NCBI GenBank assembly: GCA_958295905.1
Contig: OY282382.1
Span: 1 to 64,000 of the forward strand
Length of the DNA stretch: 64,000 bases
Source: an uncultured Vicinamibacterales bacterium
GTDB lineage: Bacteria > Acidobacteriota > Vicinamibacteria > Vicinamibacterales > UBA8438
Direction of reading: 5' to 3'
Shown: positions 40,235 through 58,955 of the stretch, in pieces
Numbering within the stretch: the stretch's first letter is position 1
Layout of the letters: every line of letters begins with the position of its first letter
Notes under the pieces: model-generated
What the model was told of the DNA's origin: nothing
Seen by the model: the letters and a program-made list of their open reading frames with translations, nothing else
Database searches by the model: none
Made by a program: the position numbers and the translations under genes

Positions 40235-40260
40235 ACAGACGGCGGCGGGGGGCGGATCGG

Positions 40261-40421
40261 CAGGGGCATCCCACGCTGACTGCGCGTGACGGCCCGCCCC
40301 CGATTCGAGGGGTCGCCACCGTCTTGCCGATCAGCCGGCGCCGCGTGAGACCCACGATTCCGCCCGTCCGGAGCCCCAGGACCCGCCACGATTGGCGGTG
40401 GCGGAGCGTGGGATGGTCCTG
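40261..40421 (-). repeat. Family B element, tandem copy 1
   Basis: Ends CAGGGGCATCCCACGCT and AGCGTGGGATGGTCCTG. It lacks about 11 bp of the interior (CCTGCGCACGG) relative to its neighbour. Confidence 0.9.
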
Positions 40422-40431
40422 GGCGGATCGG

Positions 40432-40603
40432 CAGGAGCATCCCACGCTGACTGCGCGTGACGGCCCGCCCCGATTCGAGGGGTCGCCACCGTCTTGCCGA
40501 TCAGCCGGCGCCGCGTGAGACCCACGATTCCGCCCGTCCGGAGCCCCAGGACCCGCCACGATTCCGCCTGCGCACGGCGGTGGCGGAGCGTGGGATGGTC
40601 CTG
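40432..40603 (-). repeat. Family B element, tandem copy 2
   Basis: A 172-bp copy with ends CAGGAGCATCCCACGCT and AGCGTGGGATGGTCCTG, 10 bp after the previous copy and in the same orientation. The two fill the gap between larB (-) and gltA (+). Confidence 0.9.
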
Positions 40604-52197: not shown

Positions 52198-52818
52198 TCA
52201 AATTTCGGGGTCCGGCGGGGGCGATTTCGCCGATCGCGCCCCCAGCAGTTGCCACAACGCGGCGAGCAGTCCCAGGCTCAGCCACCCCACCGCGAACGGC
52301 ACCTGCCCAAGGGCCGGGGCCAAGGGATACATCCGCCACAGGTCGCCGCCGACCACCGCCTGCGCGCCGGGGTGCCCCACGAGCGCGAGGACCCCCACGA
52401 GGGCGGTCCACGCGCCGCCGAAGGCGGTCCCCACGATGATGACGTGGCGCTGCAGGACCACTGCGATGCTCGCGCCGATGAGACACGCGAGGATGACCAT
52501 CCAGGCCTCGGGCTCGCCGCCGGCCGGGGGCCAGGAGAGGTTGAGGACCAGCACCCCGACGCCGGCCCCCGCCACCGCCACCGCCGCCAGATAGACGACG
52601 AGCAGCACCGCGGCCCCGGCCAAGCCGCCCACGATGACCACCGCGGCCGCCGGCCACGACGGCAGCGTGCCGACGAACAACGACGTGACCCAGGCGCCCC
52701 CCGCGAACCCGTACAGCACCAGCAGCCACCGAAACAACCGGTAGCCCAGGAAGCAGGTCACCAGCCCGGCCGCCAGTAGAATGATCGCCGCCAGGACCTG
52801 CGGCGACAGGAAGGCCAT
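52198..52818 (-). CDS. DUF4203-like multi-pass membrane protein
   Basis: About 206 residues from the ATG at 52818, almost all hydrophobic: VLAAIILLAAGLVTCFLGYR, WLLVLYGFAGGAWVTSLFVG, AAVVIVGGLAGAAVLLVVYL, AGAGVGVLVLNLSW, VILACLIGASIAVVLQRHVI and VPFAVGWLSLGLLAALWQLL, seven helices. This resembles DUF4203/TM7S3-like proteins of unknown function. Its start is only 9 bp from that of the divergent fusion gene, so their promoters must overlap each other's coding sequence or the true starts lie further in. Confidence 0.6.
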   Translation of the reverse strand: MAFLSPQVLAAIILLAAGLVTCFLGYRLFRWLLVLYGFAGGAWVTSLFVGTLPSWPAAAVVIVGGLAGAAVLLVVYLAAVAVAGAGVGVLVLNLSWPPAGGEPEAWMVILACLIGASIAVVLQRHVIIVGTAFGGAWTALVGVLALVGHPGAQAVVGGDLWRMYPLAPALGQVPFAVGWLSLGLLAALWQLLGARSAKSPPPDPEI

Positions 52819-52827
52819 CCCGCCATT

Positions 52828-55065
52828 ATGCCGGCGCGCGTCGAAGCGCCGCAACACGCGATGCCCGACGCTTCGACCCCGGCCCGCCGCCCGAGACCAT
52901 TCTCCCCGGCCGGCCTAGCCGCGGCGGCGGCGGGCGTCGCGCTGTTCGTCTACTTCGTCGAACGCACCGGCGCCGCGAACATCGCGGCGGGGGCCGGCCG
53001 CCTCGGGTGGACTTTCCCGGCGATCGTGGCCCTCGGCGGCCTGCGGCTCGCCGCGCGGGCTCTGGCTTGGCGCAACTGCCTCGACGACCGGCACCGCCTG
53101 ACCCGCCGGCACGCGTTCTGCGCCGTGGTCGCTGGCGATACGCTGGGGAACCTGACCCCGCTGGGCCCGCTCGCCGGCGAGCCGGCGAAGGCCCTGTTCG
53201 CGGTCGACCGCGAGCCGGCGGCGCGCACCCTCCCGGCCCTCGCCGTCGAGAATCTGTTCTTCACCCTGTCGGCGGCCCTCGTCGTCGCCGGCGGGGCGAT
53301 CGCCCTGGTGCTCCGGCTCGGTCCGGCCCACCGAGGGTGGATGGCCGGCGCGGCGCTGGCGGCGACGCTCGTTCTGCTGATCATGGCCCTCCATGGGGTG
53401 ATGTGGCGGCGCCGGCATCCCGCCAGCGGTCTGCTCGCGGGGGCCGCGCGGCTCGGTCCGGCGGCGAACCGCCTCGGGGGCTGGGCCGAACGGGTGCGCC
53501 GGGTCGAGCATCGCGTGCACGACCTGTACCCCCGCGCGCCCCGCCGGCTCGCCGCCGTGGCCGGCTGGGAGCTCGGCTTCCACGCCCTCGCGATCCTCGA
53601 GATTCACCTCGTGCTCGCGTTCGTCAGCGCCGTGCCGCCGACCCTGCTCGACGCGTTCGTCCTCGAATCGACGAACCGCCTCCTGGCCGCCGCGTTCAAG
53701 GTCGTCCCGCTGCGCATCGGCGTGGACGAAGCAGGCGCCGCCGCGGTGGCTGAACTGCTGGCGTTGGGCGGCGGCGCCGGGGTCACCCTGGCCATCGTGC
53801 GCAAGGCGCGCATGCTGGTGTGGATGGCCGCCGGGATCGTGCTGCTGGCGCGCCGGGGGCTGCTGGCGCGCCGCCGCGGAGGCGGCGCGGCGGCGCCGGC
53901 GGCGGACGGTCCGGAGGCGCCCGCGCCAAGCCACCCGGCTGGCGCCCGGCAGCCGAAGGTCCGAGAAGCTGTCGCGGTGGCCGCGGACAGTTCGGAGGAG
54001 CCCGCGCCACACCACCACGCCGTAGTGGTGGCCACGGACGGTCCGGAAGCACCCGCGCCGCGCCGCCCGGCTGGCGCCCGGCAGCCGGAGGTCCGAGAGG
54101 CTGTCGCGGTGGCCGCCGACAGTTCGGAGGAGCCCGCGCCACACCGCCACGCCGTAGTGGTGGCCACGGACGGTCCGGTAGCACCCGCGCCGCGCCGCCC
54201 GGCTGGCGCCCGGCAGCCGGAGGTCCGAGAGGCTGTCGCGGTGGCCGCGGACGGTCCGGTAGCACCCGCGCCGCGCCGCCACACCGTAGTGGTGGCCGCG
54301 GACAGTCCGGAGGCGCCCGCGCCACGCGGCCCGGCGGTCGTGGTGATGGCGCGCTCGCCGCGGGGCGCGCGGGCGCCCAAGACGCGGCTGGCCGGCGTGC
54401 TGACCAACGTGGAGGACCGGCGGCGGCTGTACGCCGCCTTCCTGACCGACGTCGTCTCGGCGTGCCGCACCGTGGCGGGGACCACCGTCCGGGTCGCGTA
54501 CACCCCCGACGGCGGACCGCTAGGGTTCGCCCCGGTCGGGATCGCCGGCGGAGAGCTGATGCCGCAACGGGGGGCCAGCCTGGGCGACCGCGAGCGCGGC
54601 GTCTTCGAAGACTTGTTCCGCGGCGGGTTCTCGCCGGTGGTGATGATAGGCTCCGACCTGCCGGGGCTGCCGGCGGCGCGGATCGGCGACGCGCTCGACC
54701 GGCTGGCCGCGGCACGCGACACGGCGGTGCTGGGTCCCACCCCGGACGGCGGCTACTACCTGCTCGGACTCGCCCGTCCCGGAACCGGACGCGCGGTGCC
54801 GGATCTGTTCACCGGCATCCGCTGGAGCAGCGCCCGGACCCGCGCCGACACCGTGGCTGCGGCTGAACGATGCGGGCTGCAGGTCGTGCTGCTGGACCCG
54901 TGGCGCGACGTCGACGACGCGGCGGACCTCGCCGAGCTTCGCATCACGCTTGCCGGCCCGGGTGCCGGCCGGGCCCCCGCCACCGCATCCGTGTTGCAGG
55001 ACCTGGCGGCCCGGAATCGCGGACTCACATCCCGCGGCGGCCCTCCATCGCCTTCGGCATCGTGA
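52828..55065 (+). CDS. Flippase-like membrane domain fused to a DUF2064 glycosyltransferase
   Basis: A 745-residue fusion. Residues 20-345 are a UPF0104/LPG-synthase-type flippase domain (VALGGLRLAARALAWRNCLD, LGNLTPLGPLAGEPAKALFA, FKVVPLRIGVDEAGAAAVAE). Residues 370-500 are a Pro/Ala linker with three 44-residue repeats. From about 500 on is a complete TIGR04282/DUF2064 glycosyltransferase-like domain (VVMARSPRGARAPKTRLAGV, VMIGSDLPGLPAARIGDALD, VLGPTPDGGYYLLGLARPGT). The two parts are usually separate genes. A lipid-linked sugar transfer role is inferred. The last 20 residues are read through a duplicated recR end, so the native C-terminus may be lost. An internal ATG at 52861 may be the start. 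Confidence 0.82.
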   Translation: MPARVEAPQHAMPDASTPARRPRPFSPAGLAAAAAGVALFVYFVERTGAANIAAGAGRLGWTFPAIVALGGLRLAARALAWRNCLDDRHRLTRRHAFCAVVAGDTLGNLTPLGPLAGEPAKALFAVDREPAARTLPALAVENLFFTLSAALVVAGGAIALVLRLGPAHRGWMAGAALAATLVLLIMALHGVMWRRRHPASGLLAGAARLGPAANRLGGWAERVRRVEHRVHDLYPRAPRRLAAVAGWELGFHALAILEIHLVLAFVSAVPPTLLDAFVLESTNRLLAAAFKVVPLRIGVDEAGAAAVAELLALGGGAGVTLAIVRKARMLVWMAAGIVLLARRGLLARRRGGGAAAPAADGPEAPAPSHPAGARQPKVREAVAVAADSSEEPAPHHHAVVVATDGPEAPAPRRPAGARQPEVREAVAVAADSSEEPAPHRHAVVVATDGPVAPAPRRPAGARQPEVREAVAVAADGPVAPAPRRHTVVVAADSPEAPAPRGPAVVVMARSPRGARAPKTRLAGVLTNVEDRRRLYAAFLTDVVSACRTVAGTTVRVAYTPDGGPLGFAPVGIAGGELMPQRGASLGDRERGVFEDLFRGGFSPVVMIGSDLPGLPAARIGDALDRLAAARDTAVLGPTPDGGYYLLGLARPGTGRAVPDLFTGIRWSSARTRADTVAAAERCGLQVVLLDPWRDVDDAADLAELRITLAGPGAGRAPATASVLQDLAARNRGLTSRGGPPSPSAS
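53941..54336 (+). repeat. 132-bp tandem repeat inside the fusion gene (3 units)
   Basis: Units start at 53941, 54073 and 54205 with GGCGCCCGGCAGCCG and encode a 44-residue Pro/Ala/Val segment (GARQPEVREAVAVAADSSEE, PAPHRHAVVVATDG). A partial fourth unit leads into the glycosyltransferase domain. The units differ by a few bases. Confidence 0.9.
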
Positions 55066-55085
55066 TCTCGTCGGCGTACTCGAGG
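55006..55085 (+). repeat. Duplicate of the recR 3' end
   Basis: 80 bp (GCGGCCCGGAATCGCGGACT to GTCGGCGTACTCGAGG) repeat 55781-55860, the recR terminus, with two or three substitutions, in the same orientation. The copy forms the last codons and stop of the flippase/glycosyltransferase fusion. Confidence 0.88.
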
Positions 55086-55131
55086 GTGCCGGCCCGGCCC
55101 CCGCTACCGCGTCCATGATGCAGGACCTGGC

Positions 55132-55182
55132 GGCTCGTCACGTCATAATATTCGGATAGACGGACTTGAGTCGAATGATGCG
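55132..55182 (+). repeat. Dispersed repeat family F, copy 2
   Basis: CGTCACGTCATAATATTCGG and AGACGGACTTGAGTCGAA also occur at 22418-22470. It lies between two genes and has no conserved frame. Confidence 0.7.
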
Positions 55183-55340
55183 ATTCATGAACCGCATGGC
55201 GGAAAGAATCTGCTGTTGCGTGTTCGGTCACTGGCGTGAGCGCCTACCCCGCTCCCGAAGCGCCGCAGATGCGAACTACGGCGTTTCACCTTGTGCGGAC
55301 GGCGTTTCTACCTTCCACGGAATCGGGGTATCATGCCGAC

Positions 55341-55592
55341 ATGCCGAGCCGGGACGTTCAGTGGCTTATCGGTGTCGTCGTGGCCGCAGCCGTGGCCATC
55401 AGCGTGCAGACGGGCGTGCAGTTCGCCGGTCTCCGGAGCGAGATCGCCGGTCTCCGGGGCGGGATCGGGGAACTGCGGACCGACCTGCGCCGGCTCGATG
55501 ACCGTCTCCGGGCCGTCGAGATTGCGTTGGGGAAGGTCGAGCAACGCCTTGAGACGCTCGAACGGCTGAACCTGCCCACGCCGGCCGACTAG
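55341..55592 (+). CDS. Small membrane-anchored coiled-coil protein
   Basis: 83 residues: one helix (WLIGVVVAAAVAISVQTGVQ) and then a heptad-rich coil (LRSEIAGLRGGIGELRTDLR, RLDDRLRAVEIALGKVEQRL, ETLERLNLP). This is the common one-TM plus coiled-coil design with no known function; such proteins often oligomerise. The start MPSRDVQWLIGVVVAA is preferred over an upstream Met. A family H hairpin overlaps the stop codon (the TAG is part of CTAGGAGTCTGCGCC). Confidence 0.55.
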   Translation: MPSRDVQWLIGVVVAAAVAISVQTGVQFAGLRSEIAGLRGGIGELRTDLRRLDDRLRAVEIALGKVEQRLETLERLNLPTPAD

Positions 55593-55780
55593 GAGTCTGC
55601 GCCATAGAACGGCGCGGACTCCTGGAAGGTTGGTTGGGCGGTGAGCGGAGCCGCAGGCGACGCTCTAGGAGTCTGCGCCGTAGAACCGTTTTGGATCCGA
55701 TCTAGCACAATATGTAGCGTTCAATCGCCTAAACTTGCACAACATATGGTGGTCAGAATTTCCTGCGGCGCAGACTCTTA
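55591..55780 (+). repeat. Cluster of family H hairpins and family G module
   Basis: 55591-55623: AGGAGTCTGCGCC and GGCGCGGACTCCT, a compact hairpin over the stop codon of the small gene. 55624-55666: family G (GGTTGGTTGGGCGG...GCCGCAGGCGACG). 55667-55780: an element of 114 bp bounded by AGGAGTCTGCGCCG and CGGCGCAGACTCTT with an AT-rich interior (ACAATATGTAGCGTTCAATC). Confidence 0.75.
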
Positions 55781-55799
55781 GCGGCCCGGAATCGCGGAC

Positions 55800-56396
55800 T
55801 CACATCTCGCGGCGGCCCTCCATCGCCTTCAGCATCGTGATCTCGTCGGCGTACTCGAGGTCGCTGCCCACCGGCACCCCCATCGCGATGCGGCTGACCC
55901 GCACCCCGAGCGGCTTGAGTAGCTTCGCCAGATAGATGGCCGTCGCCTCTCCCTCGACGTTGGGATTGGTGGCGAGAATCACCTCAGTCACCTCGCCGCC
56001 GCCGACCCGCCGCAGCAGCCCCGCGATCCGCAGATCGTCGGGACCGACCCCCTTCAACGGCGACAACGCCCCCATCAACACGTGGTAGGCGCCCTTGAAG
56101 TCGCCGGTCTTCTCGATCGCGGCGACGTTGTGCGGATCCTCCACCACGCACAGCAACCGCCGATCCCGCCCCGCGTCGGTGCAGTAGAAGCAGGGGTCGC
56201 AGTCGGTGATGTTCGAGCAGACCGAGCAGTAGACGACCCGCTCCTTGACGTCGCGAATGGCCTCGCACAACTGGTCGGCCTCCCCGCGCGGCTGCTTCAG
56301 GAGGTGGAAGGCCAGCCGCTGGGCGCTCTTGGCCCCGATGCCCGGCAGCTTCTGGAGCTCGCCGGTCAGCCGCACGAGGGGCTCGACTCGTGTCAT
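55800..56396 (-). CDS. recR: Recombination protein RecR
   Basis: A 198-residue RecR of normal length. The N-terminal helix-hairpin-helix is [20 protein letters not shown], the zinc finger [16 protein letters not shown] (Cys57-72), then the Toprim domain with [20 protein letters not shown] (Glu86-Asp87) and [20 protein letters not shown], and [20 protein letters not shown] at the end. RecR loads RecA on gapped DNA with RecF and RecO. It lies 17 bp after ybaB in the dnaX-ybaB-recR operon. An 80-bp copy of its end occurs 775 bp away. Confidence 0.96.
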
Positions 56397-56412: not shown

Positions 56413-56712
56413 TCACGACAGCCCGGGAATCTTGAGCCCGCCCATCATGCCGCCCATCCGCTGGGAGACCAGCTCGTCGACGCGGCGCTGCGCATCGGTC
56501 ACCGCCGCCACGATGAGGTCCTGCAGCATCTCCACATCGTCGGGCGACACCACCTCGGGGTCGATGCTCAGGCTCTGGATCTCCTTGACCCCGTTCATCA
56601 CGACGGTCACCATGCCGCCGCCGGCGGTCGCCTCGACCGTGGCCTGCTTGAGCTGCTTCTGCAAATTGTCCTGCATCTGCTGCGCCTGCTGCATCATCTT
56701 CTGTATGTTCAT
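56413..56712 (-). CDS. ybaB: YbaB/EbfC nucleoid-associated protein
   Basis: 99 residues: [20 protein letters not shown], then [20 protein letters not shown] and [20 protein letters not shown], the full YbaB pattern. The protein dimerises and binds DNA without strict specificity. A GTG at 56718 would overlap the dnaX stop (GTGA) and extend the protein by two residues; either start implies translational coupling to dnaX. The C-terminal [13 protein letters not shown] is Gly/Met-rich as usual. Confidence 0.94.
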
Positions 56713-56714
56713 GG

Positions 56715-58955
56715 TCACATCTCTTCGACGTCCTTGATCTCGGCCGGGAACACGTCGAGCATGGTCTGCACCGCGGGGTCGCCCATCGCCTGCGACAGCA
56801 GGTCGTCGGCCTTCTCCGACGGCGGCGCCGCGGACCCGGAACGCACCGGCGAACCGAGCAGCCCCGGGGCGCGCCGCGCCGGCGGACCGGGGGGCGGCGG
56901 GGAACCGGACTGCACCGGTGACCCGAGCAGCGCCGGCGGACCGGGGGGCGGCGGGGAACCGGACTGCACCGGTGACCCGAGCAGCGAGGGCGCGGAGGCG
57001 ACCGGGGGCGCGTCCGCCGTCTCCGCCCCTTCGGACTGCGACGGCTGCTCGGACCGCACCGGCGGCCCGAGCAGCGAGGGCGCGCGGTCCGCCGGCCGTT
57101 CGGTCGCCGACGGAGCCCCCGACCGCACCGACGGACCGAGCGGTGACGGACCGGGATCCGACGGCGGCTCGGACCGCACCGGCGATCCGAGCGACGGCGG
57201 CTCGGGATCAGACGAGAGATCGAGATCGGCCGGCGGCTCGGTCGGCGGCGACGGCTCCGGCGGCAGCGTCGTCAGGGCCGGCTGCCGCGGGTCCGGCCCC
57301 GACTCCCCCGACGCGGTCCGGGTGGAGGGGGGCGCCGGCCCGTCGACCTGCCGGACGGTCACCGTCGTCTTCCGTCCGGCCACTTGTCCGGCCAGCGGTT
57401 CGAGCCACGAGCGGTTCTTTTCGACTTGCTGCGCCAGCGTGCGCTGGGCCGTGGTGAAGACGAACGCGATCCGCCCGTTCTCGACCTCGATCTCACGGGC
57501 CTGGGCGGCCACCGTCCCGTGGAAGAACTTCCTCGTACGCTGCAGCTCGGCGAGAAAGCGTTCCTTCAGGCCGGCCGCCGACCCGGTGGGGGGGGCCGGG
57601 GCGGCCGCCGCCGGCGACCGGCCGACCGGGGGGCCGGGAGAGGGCTCGGGATGCGCCGCCGCCGAAGGGGCCGGGGGGGGGCCGGGAGAGGGCTCGGGAC
57701 GCGCCGGGGCCGGGGAGGCCGCGGTCCGGCGCACCTGCGGCGCCGGCCGGGCGCGCCGCGGCGGCTCGACCGGCGCCGGTCGGCGGCCGACCGGCGTTGC
57801 GCCCGAGGGGGCCGCCTCGAGCCGGCCGGCCCCGCCGAGCAGATCGGCCAGCGGCACGAGCGCGCGCAGGTGGATCCAGCGCAGCATCGCCATCTCAAAG
57901 TGGTAGCGGGGCTGCGTCGCGTTGCGGATGTCGAGCTCGGCCCGCGACAGCACGTCGAACCCGCGCAGCAGATCCTCACGCGAGAACCGATCGACCAGCG
58001 CCTGCAGGCGGTCGCGCTCGGCGTCGAGAGCGATCTCGGGGTCGCCGATGCGGCGCGCGTCCACCTTCAGCACCATCAGGTCCCGCACCAGCCGAGCCAG
58101 CTCGCGGCAGACCGACCGCAGGTCGTATCCCGCCTCGACGAAACGGCCCGCCAGATCGAAGACGCGCTCGGCCGCCTCGGCCGCAACCGTCTCCGCCATC
58201 TCGAGGACCGCATCGCGGCCCACCAGGCCCAGCACCGCGGACACGTCGTCGGCCCCCGCCGAATCACCCGCGAAGGCGATCACCTGATCGAGCGCGCTCT
58301 GCGCGTCGCGCATGCTGCCGTTGGCGGTGCGGGCGACGAGGGCGAGACCCGCCTCGTCGACGGAGACCTCCTCCGCCGCGACGATCGTCCGAAGCTGCTC
58401 GGCGATGGCGGCGGTGCCGATGGTGCGGAACTCGAAGACCTGCGAGCGCGAGAGAATCGTGTCGGGAATCTTGTCGAGCAGGGTCGTCGCCATGATGAAG
58501 ACCACGTGCGGCGGCGGCTCCTCGACGGATTTCAGCAGGGCGTTGAACGAACTGGACGAGAGCTGGTGCACCTCGTCGATGATGAACACCTTGTAGCGGT
58601 CGCGCACCGGGGCGATCGACAGCCCCGAGATGATCACCTCGCGAACGTTGTCGACCTGGGTGTGGGTGGCGGCATCTATCTCCAGCACGTCGATGTCGCG
58701 GCCCTCGGCGACCTCGCGGCAGACATCGCATTCGCCGCACGGGTCGGCGGTCGGCCCCTCGACGCAGTTCAGGGCCCGGGCGAGAATGCGCGCCGTCGTC
58801 GTCTTGCCGACACCGCGCGGCCCCGCGAACACGAAGGCATGGGCGAGCCGCCCGCGGGCGATGGCGTTGCGCAGGGTCTGGGTGACGCCGCGCTGGCCGA
58901 TGACGTCATCGAGCCGTTGCGGCCGCCACTTGCGGGCGAGAACCTGATAGGCCAT
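56715..58955 (-). CDS. dnaX: DNA polymerase III subunits gamma and tau
   Basis: A 746-residue clamp-loader ATPase. Walker [10 protein letters not shown] lies at 45-53, the zinc-binding Cys64, 73, 76 and 79 in [18 protein letters not shown], Walker B in [20 protein letters not shown] with VEEPP after it, and the sensor-1 [12 protein letters not shown]-like segment follows. The linker (residues 400-490) and tail (560-720) are Pro-rich; the tail repeats [17 protein letters not shown]. No A-rich slippery site was noticed, so a gamma-only product by frameshift is not evident. It heads the dnaX-ybaB-recR operon, with the SRP RNA gene just upstream on the same strand. Confidence 0.95.

What the first reader, a model, noticed from the sequence alone, without database searches (positions are those of the whole stretch)
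52828..55065. Flippase domain fused to a DUF2064 glycosyltransferase through a 44-residue tandem repeat
UPF0104-type membrane proteins and TIGR04282/DUF2064 transferases are normally separate. Here both are complete in one frame, joined by three 132-bp repeats. The fusion predicts that sugar transfer and lipid handling act on one substrate, and the variable linker could tune spacing.
Basis: partly seen in the sequence, partly recalled or inferred. Interest (0 to 1): 0.7.

Follow-up and report, generated by a model that had tools for sequence, protein, structure and literature searches.

The report
Flippase fused to nucleotide-using enzyme domain
A bacterial membrane protein joins a lipid-flipping domain to a nucleotide-using enzyme domain; the join is shared by many relatives, while the repeated spacer between the two halves is a local and probably unimportant expansion.

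Summary
One 745-codon frame (52828-55065, +) carries an N-terminal membrane domain, a 132-bp (44-residue) tandem array and a full DUF2064/TIGR04282 domain.

The fusion is not a one-off. In the window's family 13 of 28 sampled genomes have it, 7 have two adjacent, mostly overlapping genes, and 8 are cut off or without a match. A second family of the order has it in 4 of 9 listed genomes. Synteny with recR-ybaB-dnaX is kept. The linker is 0-29 residues in most fused relatives, 54 unrepeated residues in the sister species, and 136 repeated residues only here. The genome is rich in tandem arrays, so a spacing function has no support.

The membrane domain models as the MprF flippase domain (Z 18-19, five entries). 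The C-terminal domain is not safely called a glycosyltransferase: its solved relatives of known activity are CofC/FbiD guanylyltransferases, and it keeps their three metal-binding aspartates (D610, D694, D696).

Best reading: a cytosolic nucleotide-dependent enzyme, probably nucleotidyl transfer, helps build the head group of a lipid that the attached flippase domain moves, on the plan of MprF and AglD. Substrate unknown. New variant of a known kind.

The parts
52828..55065 (+). Fused gene: flippase-type membrane domain, repeated linker, DUF2064 domain (true start perhaps 52861)
52897..53880 (+). Membrane domain, residues 24-351 as modelled; HpnL/UPF0104 type, MprF flippase fold
53903..54335 (+). 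132-bp tandem array (44-residue units, 3.3 copies) coding an Ala/Pro-rich linker predicted to be disordered
54322..55008 (+). DUF2064/TIGR04282 domain, about residues 499-727, CofC-like fold
54655..54657 (+). Codon of D610, aligned with the metal-binding D116 of FbiD and CofC
54907..54915 (+). Codons of D694 and D696, aligned with FbiD D188/D190 and CofC D191/D193
54960..55137 (+). Tandemly duplicated junction: gene 3' end, copy of the recR 3' end, second copy of the gene 3' end
52198..52857 (-). Conserved divergent neighbour, TM7S3/TM198-like
55800..56396 (-). Conserved convergent neighbour recR; ybaB-like (56413-56718, named from synteny and recall) and dnaX (56715-58955) follow

Best explanation
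The gene encodes one inner-membrane protein on the plan of MprF and AglD: a flippase-type bundle of helices and, on the cytosolic side, a soluble nucleotide-dependent enzyme domain. I commit to this mechanism: the DUF2064 domain uses metal ions held by D610, D694 and D696 to join a nucleotide to a phosphorylated polar group, activating it as the head group of a lipid or lipid-linked sugar, and the attached flippase domain moves the finished lipid across the membrane. Nucleotidyl transfer is judged more likely than direct glycosyl transfer. The repeated linker is a passive disordered tether, probably expanded by slippage. Shown here: two domains in one frame, conserved fusion and neighbourhood, predicted folds, conserved metal site. 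Inferred: topology, catalysis, flipping, coupling of the two. Unknown: substrate and lipid.
For: Fusion in 13 of 28 genomes of family f1 and 4 of 9 listed of f14; separate pairs adjacent, six of eight with overlapping start and stop; convergent neighbours in five f4/f10 loci. MprF fold of the membrane domain, Z 18.3-18.7 over 263-269 residues, next row 5.2. FbiD and CofC are the next solved relatives after 3cgx by sequence profile and by fold, with the three metal aspartates aligned to residues invariant in 15 of 15 and 17 of 17 sequences. Sister loci put a MobA-like NTP transferase (scanned in L054) and a flippase/CDP-alcohol transferase fusion (scanned in L053, L054) in the same slot.
Against: No enzymology of any DUF2064 protein found. 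NCBIfam names the family a glycosyltransferase, and stand-alone DUF2064 genes occur beside or fused to GT2 genes, which fits a glycosyltransferase as well. Genomes of genus g32 (f14) keep DUF2064 and lack the membrane gene in the slot (4 of 5 loci seen), so the flippase domain is not always needed. The flippase domain scores far below the HpnL cut-off, and an MprF-like fold does not show flipping. The second FbiD segment (D188/D190) has no significance on its own (-0.8 bits).
Confidence: 0.45

Rival explanations
1. The DUF2064 domain is a true glycosyltransferase that puts a sugar from an NDP-sugar directly on a membrane lipid or carrier, and the fused domain flips the product: the first reader's idea, and the logic of GpgS+GpgF and AglD.
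For: NCBIfam name of TIGR04282; 3cgx is deposited as a putative nucleotide-diphospho-sugar transferase; GT2 and GT87-like neighbours and GT2 fusions of other DUF2064 genes; AglD and the gpgSDF operon pair a glycosyltransferase with a UPF0104 protein (passages).
Against: Solved relatives of known activity among the top fold matches are nucleotidyltransferases; the three-aspartate site of CofC/FbiD is kept. The name rests on no experiment that I found.
Confidence: 0.35
2. The two domains do not share a substrate: overlapping genes in one operon merged by chance, and the fusion is tolerated because both parts are membrane-proximal or co-expressed.
For: Fusion state changes at least twice on the membrane-domain tree; separate genes overlap by a few bases, so one indel or stop change joins or splits them; DUF2064 persists without the membrane gene in genus g32.
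Against: The two genes stay neighbours in four families, also in convergent orientation where chance merging cannot be the reason; both domains stay intact in all 12 other full-length fused genes of alignment A1 besides the two cut or repeat-bearing ones, with conserved catalytic residues in 15 of 15.
Confidence: 0.16
3. The repeated linker is functional: copy number sets the distance between enzyme and flippase domain.
For: In frame (132 = 3 x 44); longest linker of the set.
Against: Of 17 fused genes scanned only the window's has a long-period array; one other has a two-copy 21-bp match. Sister species: 54 residues, unrepeated. Copy pairs differ by 4, 12 and 8 replacement against 5, 4 and 2 silent codons, no sign of constraint on sequence (three copies only). 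28 arrays of period 24 or more in 464 kb, among them another 132-bp one; dnaX next door carries three.
Confidence: 0.04

Closest known systems
MprF (lysyl/alanyl-phosphatidylglycerol synthase and flippase)
   Same: N-terminal flippase domain of the same fold followed in one chain by a cytosolic enzyme domain; recalled and from passages
   Different: Enzyme domain is DUF2064/CofC-like, not the DUF2156 aminoacyl transferase; no further helices between
AglD of archaea (glycosyltransferase plus UPF0104 domain)
   Same: Nucleotide-dependent transferase and UPF0104 domain in one chain (passage)
   Different: Domain order reversed; the enzyme is a GT2-type transferase there, DUF2064 here
gpgSDF of Pseudomonas aeruginosa
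   Same: Head-group enzyme encoded with a UPF0104 flippase candidate (passages)
   Different: Separate genes; a GT4-type transferase and a deacetylase; flippase activity unverified there too
CofC/FbiD guanylyltransferases
   Same: Fold and three metal-binding aspartates of the C-terminal domain
   Different: Far below the TIGR03552 cut-off (43 against 105 bits); no membrane domain there
Flippase-CDP-alcohol phosphatidyltransferase proteins of sister families (L053, L054)
   Same: Same chromosomal slot; a flippase-type domain joined to a head-group enzyme
   Different: Other enzyme chemistry; the NTP transferase is a separate gene

Membership tests
UPF0104 / LPG_synthase_TM (PF03706) | Score over the Pfam cut-off | tested here: inconclusive
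   Window protein not listed at E 1; 9 of 15 fused proteins match at E 0.1, best 9.4e-21
UPF0104 / LPG_synthase_TM (PF03706) | Fold of the MprF flippase domain | tested here: met
   Five MprF entries at Z 18.3-18.7, next 5.2; Foldseek E only 0.14
UPF0104 / LPG_synthase_TM (PF03706) | Lipid flipping | not testable with these tools
   Needs a transport or lipid-topology assay
HpnL (TIGR03476) | Score over the NCBIfam cut-off | tested here: not met
   75.7 against 195.65 bits; no hopene cyclase over its cut-off in the genome
TIGR04282 / DUF2064 | Score over the curated cut-off and full model | tested here: inconclusive
   PF09837 met (88 against 25.8); TIGR04282 full length but 131.8 against 134
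TIGR04282 / DUF2064 | Glycosyltransferase activity implied by the name | not testable with these tools
   No enzymology found
Arsenosugar pathway (implied by the TIGR04282 name) | Radical-SAM partner TIGR04167 in the genome | tested here: not met
   Best 32.9 against a cut-off of 300 bits
CofC proper (TIGR03552) | Score over the curated cut-off | tested here: not met
   43 against 105 bits
CofC/FbiD-like nucleotidyltransferase superfamily | Fold and three metal-binding aspartates | tested here: met
   the second FbiD segment alone is not significant
MprF | DUF2156 aminoacyl-transferase domain | tested here: not met
   Not among Pfam matches at E 1
AglD | N-terminal GT2-type domain, C-terminal UPF0104 domain | tested here: not met
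   Order reversed, no GT2 match

The most novel reading that the evidence does not exclude
An undescribed kind of lipid head-group protein in which a CofC-type nucleotidyltransferase, not a glycosyl- or aminoacyl-transferase, is built into an MprF-type flippase, so that one chain both activates the head group and moves the finished lipid; the fusion arose, split and re-fused within one bacterial order.
Probability: 0.3. Interest if true: 0.6.

Novelty: new variant of a known kind. Interest (0 to 1): 0.36.

Why it matters
Many bacteria carry flippase-like UPF0104/HpnL proteins and DUF2064 proteins of unknown substrate. A conserved fusion, with overlapping gene pairs and convergent neighbours in sister lineages, ties the two families to one pathway and gives a single gene whose removal or expression could reveal the substrate of both. 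It also warns against reading the 'arsenosugar biosynthesis glycosyltransferase' label literally, since the metal site is that of guanylyltransferases.

Tried and rejected
Arsenosugar pathway: TIGR04167 only far below its cut-off in the own genome. Hopanoid pathway: no hopene cyclase above the cut-off. Linker as a mobile or shared module: its DNA recurs elsewhere in the own genome only as two stretches of 46 and 30 bp. The DNA polymerase gamma/tau hit over the linker (NF005846, 23.9 bits against 625) is most likely composition alone. Structure of the whole protein: linker under pLDDT 50, membrane part weak, so the membrane part was modelled alone; the relative placement of the domains was not assessed. 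Stand-alone DUF2064 contexts (its output was cut in the middle, so most of L153, all of L154 and the top of L155 were not seen) gave mixed neighbourhoods. L057's large protein was read but not scanned; L058 has other genes in the slot.

Literature: searches returned no paper; two papers and ten, seen in the listing only, most of the latter on other meanings of HpnL; some searches listed papers, of which four were read as passages (PMC12713373, PMC5898192, PMC8764529, PMC6450877). That this fusion is undescribed rests on these searches of the held library only.

Fusion beyond the order was tested only on a phylum sample of 297 genomes; other phyla were not tested. A count of fused genes in reads or in strains of one species was not possible.

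Full report
Observation. The ORF at 52828-55065 (+) is intact, 745 codons. The linker holds a 132-bp array of 3.3 copies; ungapped copies are 93% and 84% identical to the first. The translated units are 44 residues long and the third is partly replaced by a 17-residue sub-unit. The C-terminal domain is a DUF2064 and matches the whole TIGR04282 model, about 2 bits under its cut-off. The N-terminal domain matches HpnL well below cut-off. Nine of 15 fused proteins match PF03706 although the window protein does not.

Who has it. The window lies on a 6.13-Mb contig of a 6.30-Mb genome. The named records nearest by this protein are Acidobacteria/Vicinamibacteria MAGs, with one labelled Chloroflexota. 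Of 100 relatives searched, 75 have a match. In the window's family f1 (28 genomes, handles G000-G027) I count 13 fused, 7 with two adjacent genes, 2 cut by a contig end (G001, G027) and 6 without a match. In family f14, one search lists 9 genomes: 4 fused (one, G094, truncated) and 5 with DUF2064 only. One search covered 162 genomes of the order and searched 297 of the phylum; every single-frame match that spans both domains lies in f1 or f14. Other phyla were not tested.

Neighbourhood. The order TM198-like / membrane gene / DUF2064 / recR / ybaB-like / dnaX recurs through f1 and f14 (Pfam names for the window's own neighbours). In three f4 loci (L060, L062, L063) and two f10 loci (L065, L070) DUF2064 and the membrane gene are convergent neighbours. 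In four of the five f14 genomes with DUF2064 alone (L068, L069, L125, L126) the membrane gene is absent from the slot; the fifth was not looked at. In L053, L054 and L057 the slot holds a larger gene with a second flippase-type domain; Pfam finds LPG_synthase_TM plus CDP-alcohol phosphatidyltransferase in L053 and L054, and a MobA-like NTP transferase beside it in L054.

How the fusion moved. Where the genes are separate, the DUF2064 start lies 1-8 nt before the end of the membrane gene in six of the eight loci examined (L035, L036, L037, L038, L039, L066), and about 60 nt after it in L033 and L073 (other start codons are possible). On the membrane-domain tree (28 rows) the fused state needs two changes: the window genus and G011 form a fused group (support 93/86) inside an otherwise separate clade. 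On the DUF2064 tree (30 rows) it needs four, of which well-supported branches force two. A re-fusion in the window's lineage is the simplest reading of the first tree, not proven.

The linker. Between the two BLAST matches there are 136 residues here, 54 in the sister species G002, 25 in G011, and from an overlap of 5 to 29 in the other fused genes (edges depend on where the matches end). Of 17 fused genes scanned, only the window's has a long-period array; L047 has a two-copy 21-bp match. In 400 kb sampled from the own genome plus the window there are 28 arrays of period 24 or more, 13 with a period divisible by three; the linker's has the third best score. dnaX next door has three of period 54, 51 and 48. 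Codon differences between copies are 5 silent/4 replacement, 4/12 and 2/8. I read the linker as a tolerated expansion.

Membrane domain. The model of residues 24-351 (328 residues, pLDDT 72.6, pTM 0.71) gives three MprF entries as its best Foldseek hits, at weak E-values (0.14-0.44). Structural alignment of the candidates gives five MprF entries at Z 18.3-18.7 over 263-269 residues against 5.2 for the next row. The stand-alone membrane gene of L054, which passes the PF03706 cut-off, aligns with it over 323 columns at 45% identity. The stretch after the last helix is basic at first, which fits a cytosolic C-terminus.

DUF2064 domain. Its best solved relative is 3cgx, a putative nucleotide-diphospho-sugar transferase. 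A profile of 17 diverse domains next finds FbiD (6bwg, E 1.9e-10) and CofC (7p97, E 6.3e-10), and the fold search ranks the same proteins after 3cgx. FbiD holds two magnesium ions with D116, D188 and D190, CofC with D116, D191 and D193 (passages of PMC6450877 and PMC8764529). In the printed alignments these fall on window D610, D694 and D696; I matched residue numbers by counting along the printed chains, with one constant offset per chain. FbiD's second segment is listed with -0.8 bits, so it supports the register but not by its own score. All three residues are invariant in 15 of 15 fused proteins and 17 of 17 diverse domains. This favours nucleotidyl transfer without proving it.

Context elsewhere. 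Stand-alone DUF2064 genes of family f23 (L147, L148, L152) lie in a row with a large membrane protein, and with a methyltransferase or a GT2 gene or both; Pfam names were obtained for the four genes of L152 (methyltransferase, DUF2064, weak GT87, GT2), the GT87-like gene of L147 and the GT2 gene of L148. DUF2064 is fused behind a GT2 domain in L142 and L143. These contexts point to lipid-linked sugars and fit either chemistry.

Known systems. MprF joins a UPF0104 flippase domain to an aminoacyl transferase, AglD joins a glycosyltransferase to a UPF0104 domain (passages), and gpgSDF encodes a glycosyltransferase, a deacetylase and a UPF0104 candidate flippase as separate genes (passages). The window protein is like these in outline and a member of none, since its enzyme domain is of a third family.

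Verdict. Confirmed observation, ordinary linker, conserved and informative fusion. Closest reading: nucleotide-dependent head-group enzyme joined to an MprF-type flippase domain, substrate unknown.

Noticed in passing
window 55583-55780: Dispersed repeat with inverted ends (23 nt, 83% complementary) and a strong hairpin (z -3.3); one search counts 62 matches of the 55138-55780 query in the own genome, most of the listed ones in this part, and related stretches in two congeners. Looks like a MITE or REP-like family.
   Followed up: partly
window 54960-55860: The junction of the fused gene's 3' end and the recR 3' end is duplicated (54960-55013 like 55084-55137, 89%; 55006-55085 like 55781-55860, 97.5%), with about 640 bp in between that hold a small coiled-coil-like ORF (55236-55592) and the dispersed repeat. 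The last residues of the fused ORF come from this.
   Followed up: partly
L053 4271-6751, L054 134-3177, L057 8960-11755: Sister families carry a UPF0104 domain fused to a CDP-alcohol phosphatidyltransferase (L053, L054 scanned) next to a MobA-like NTP transferase, in the same slot beside recR.
   Followed up: partly
L120 3832-5979: UPF0104 domain fused to MacB/FtsX permease domains in a distant family of the phylum.
   Followed up: no
L142 6889-8352, L143 5948-7327: GT2 domain fused in front of DUF2064.
   Followed up: no
window 56876-57721: Three tandem arrays of period 54, 51 and 48 in the C-terminal half of dnaX, next door to the linker array.
   Followed up: partly
window 40250-40563 and L174 5660-5973: A 170-bp tandem repeat with the same length, copy number and score at two places of the genome, so probably a dispersed element.
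   Followed up: no
L073: A MAG contig labelled Chloroflexota groups with G019 of the window's family in both trees; the label is probably wrong.
   Followed up: partly
L068, L069, L125, L126: Genomes of genus g32 (f14, 1.5-2.5 Mb) keep DUF2064 between the TM198-like gene and recR but have lost the membrane gene there.
   Followed up: partly
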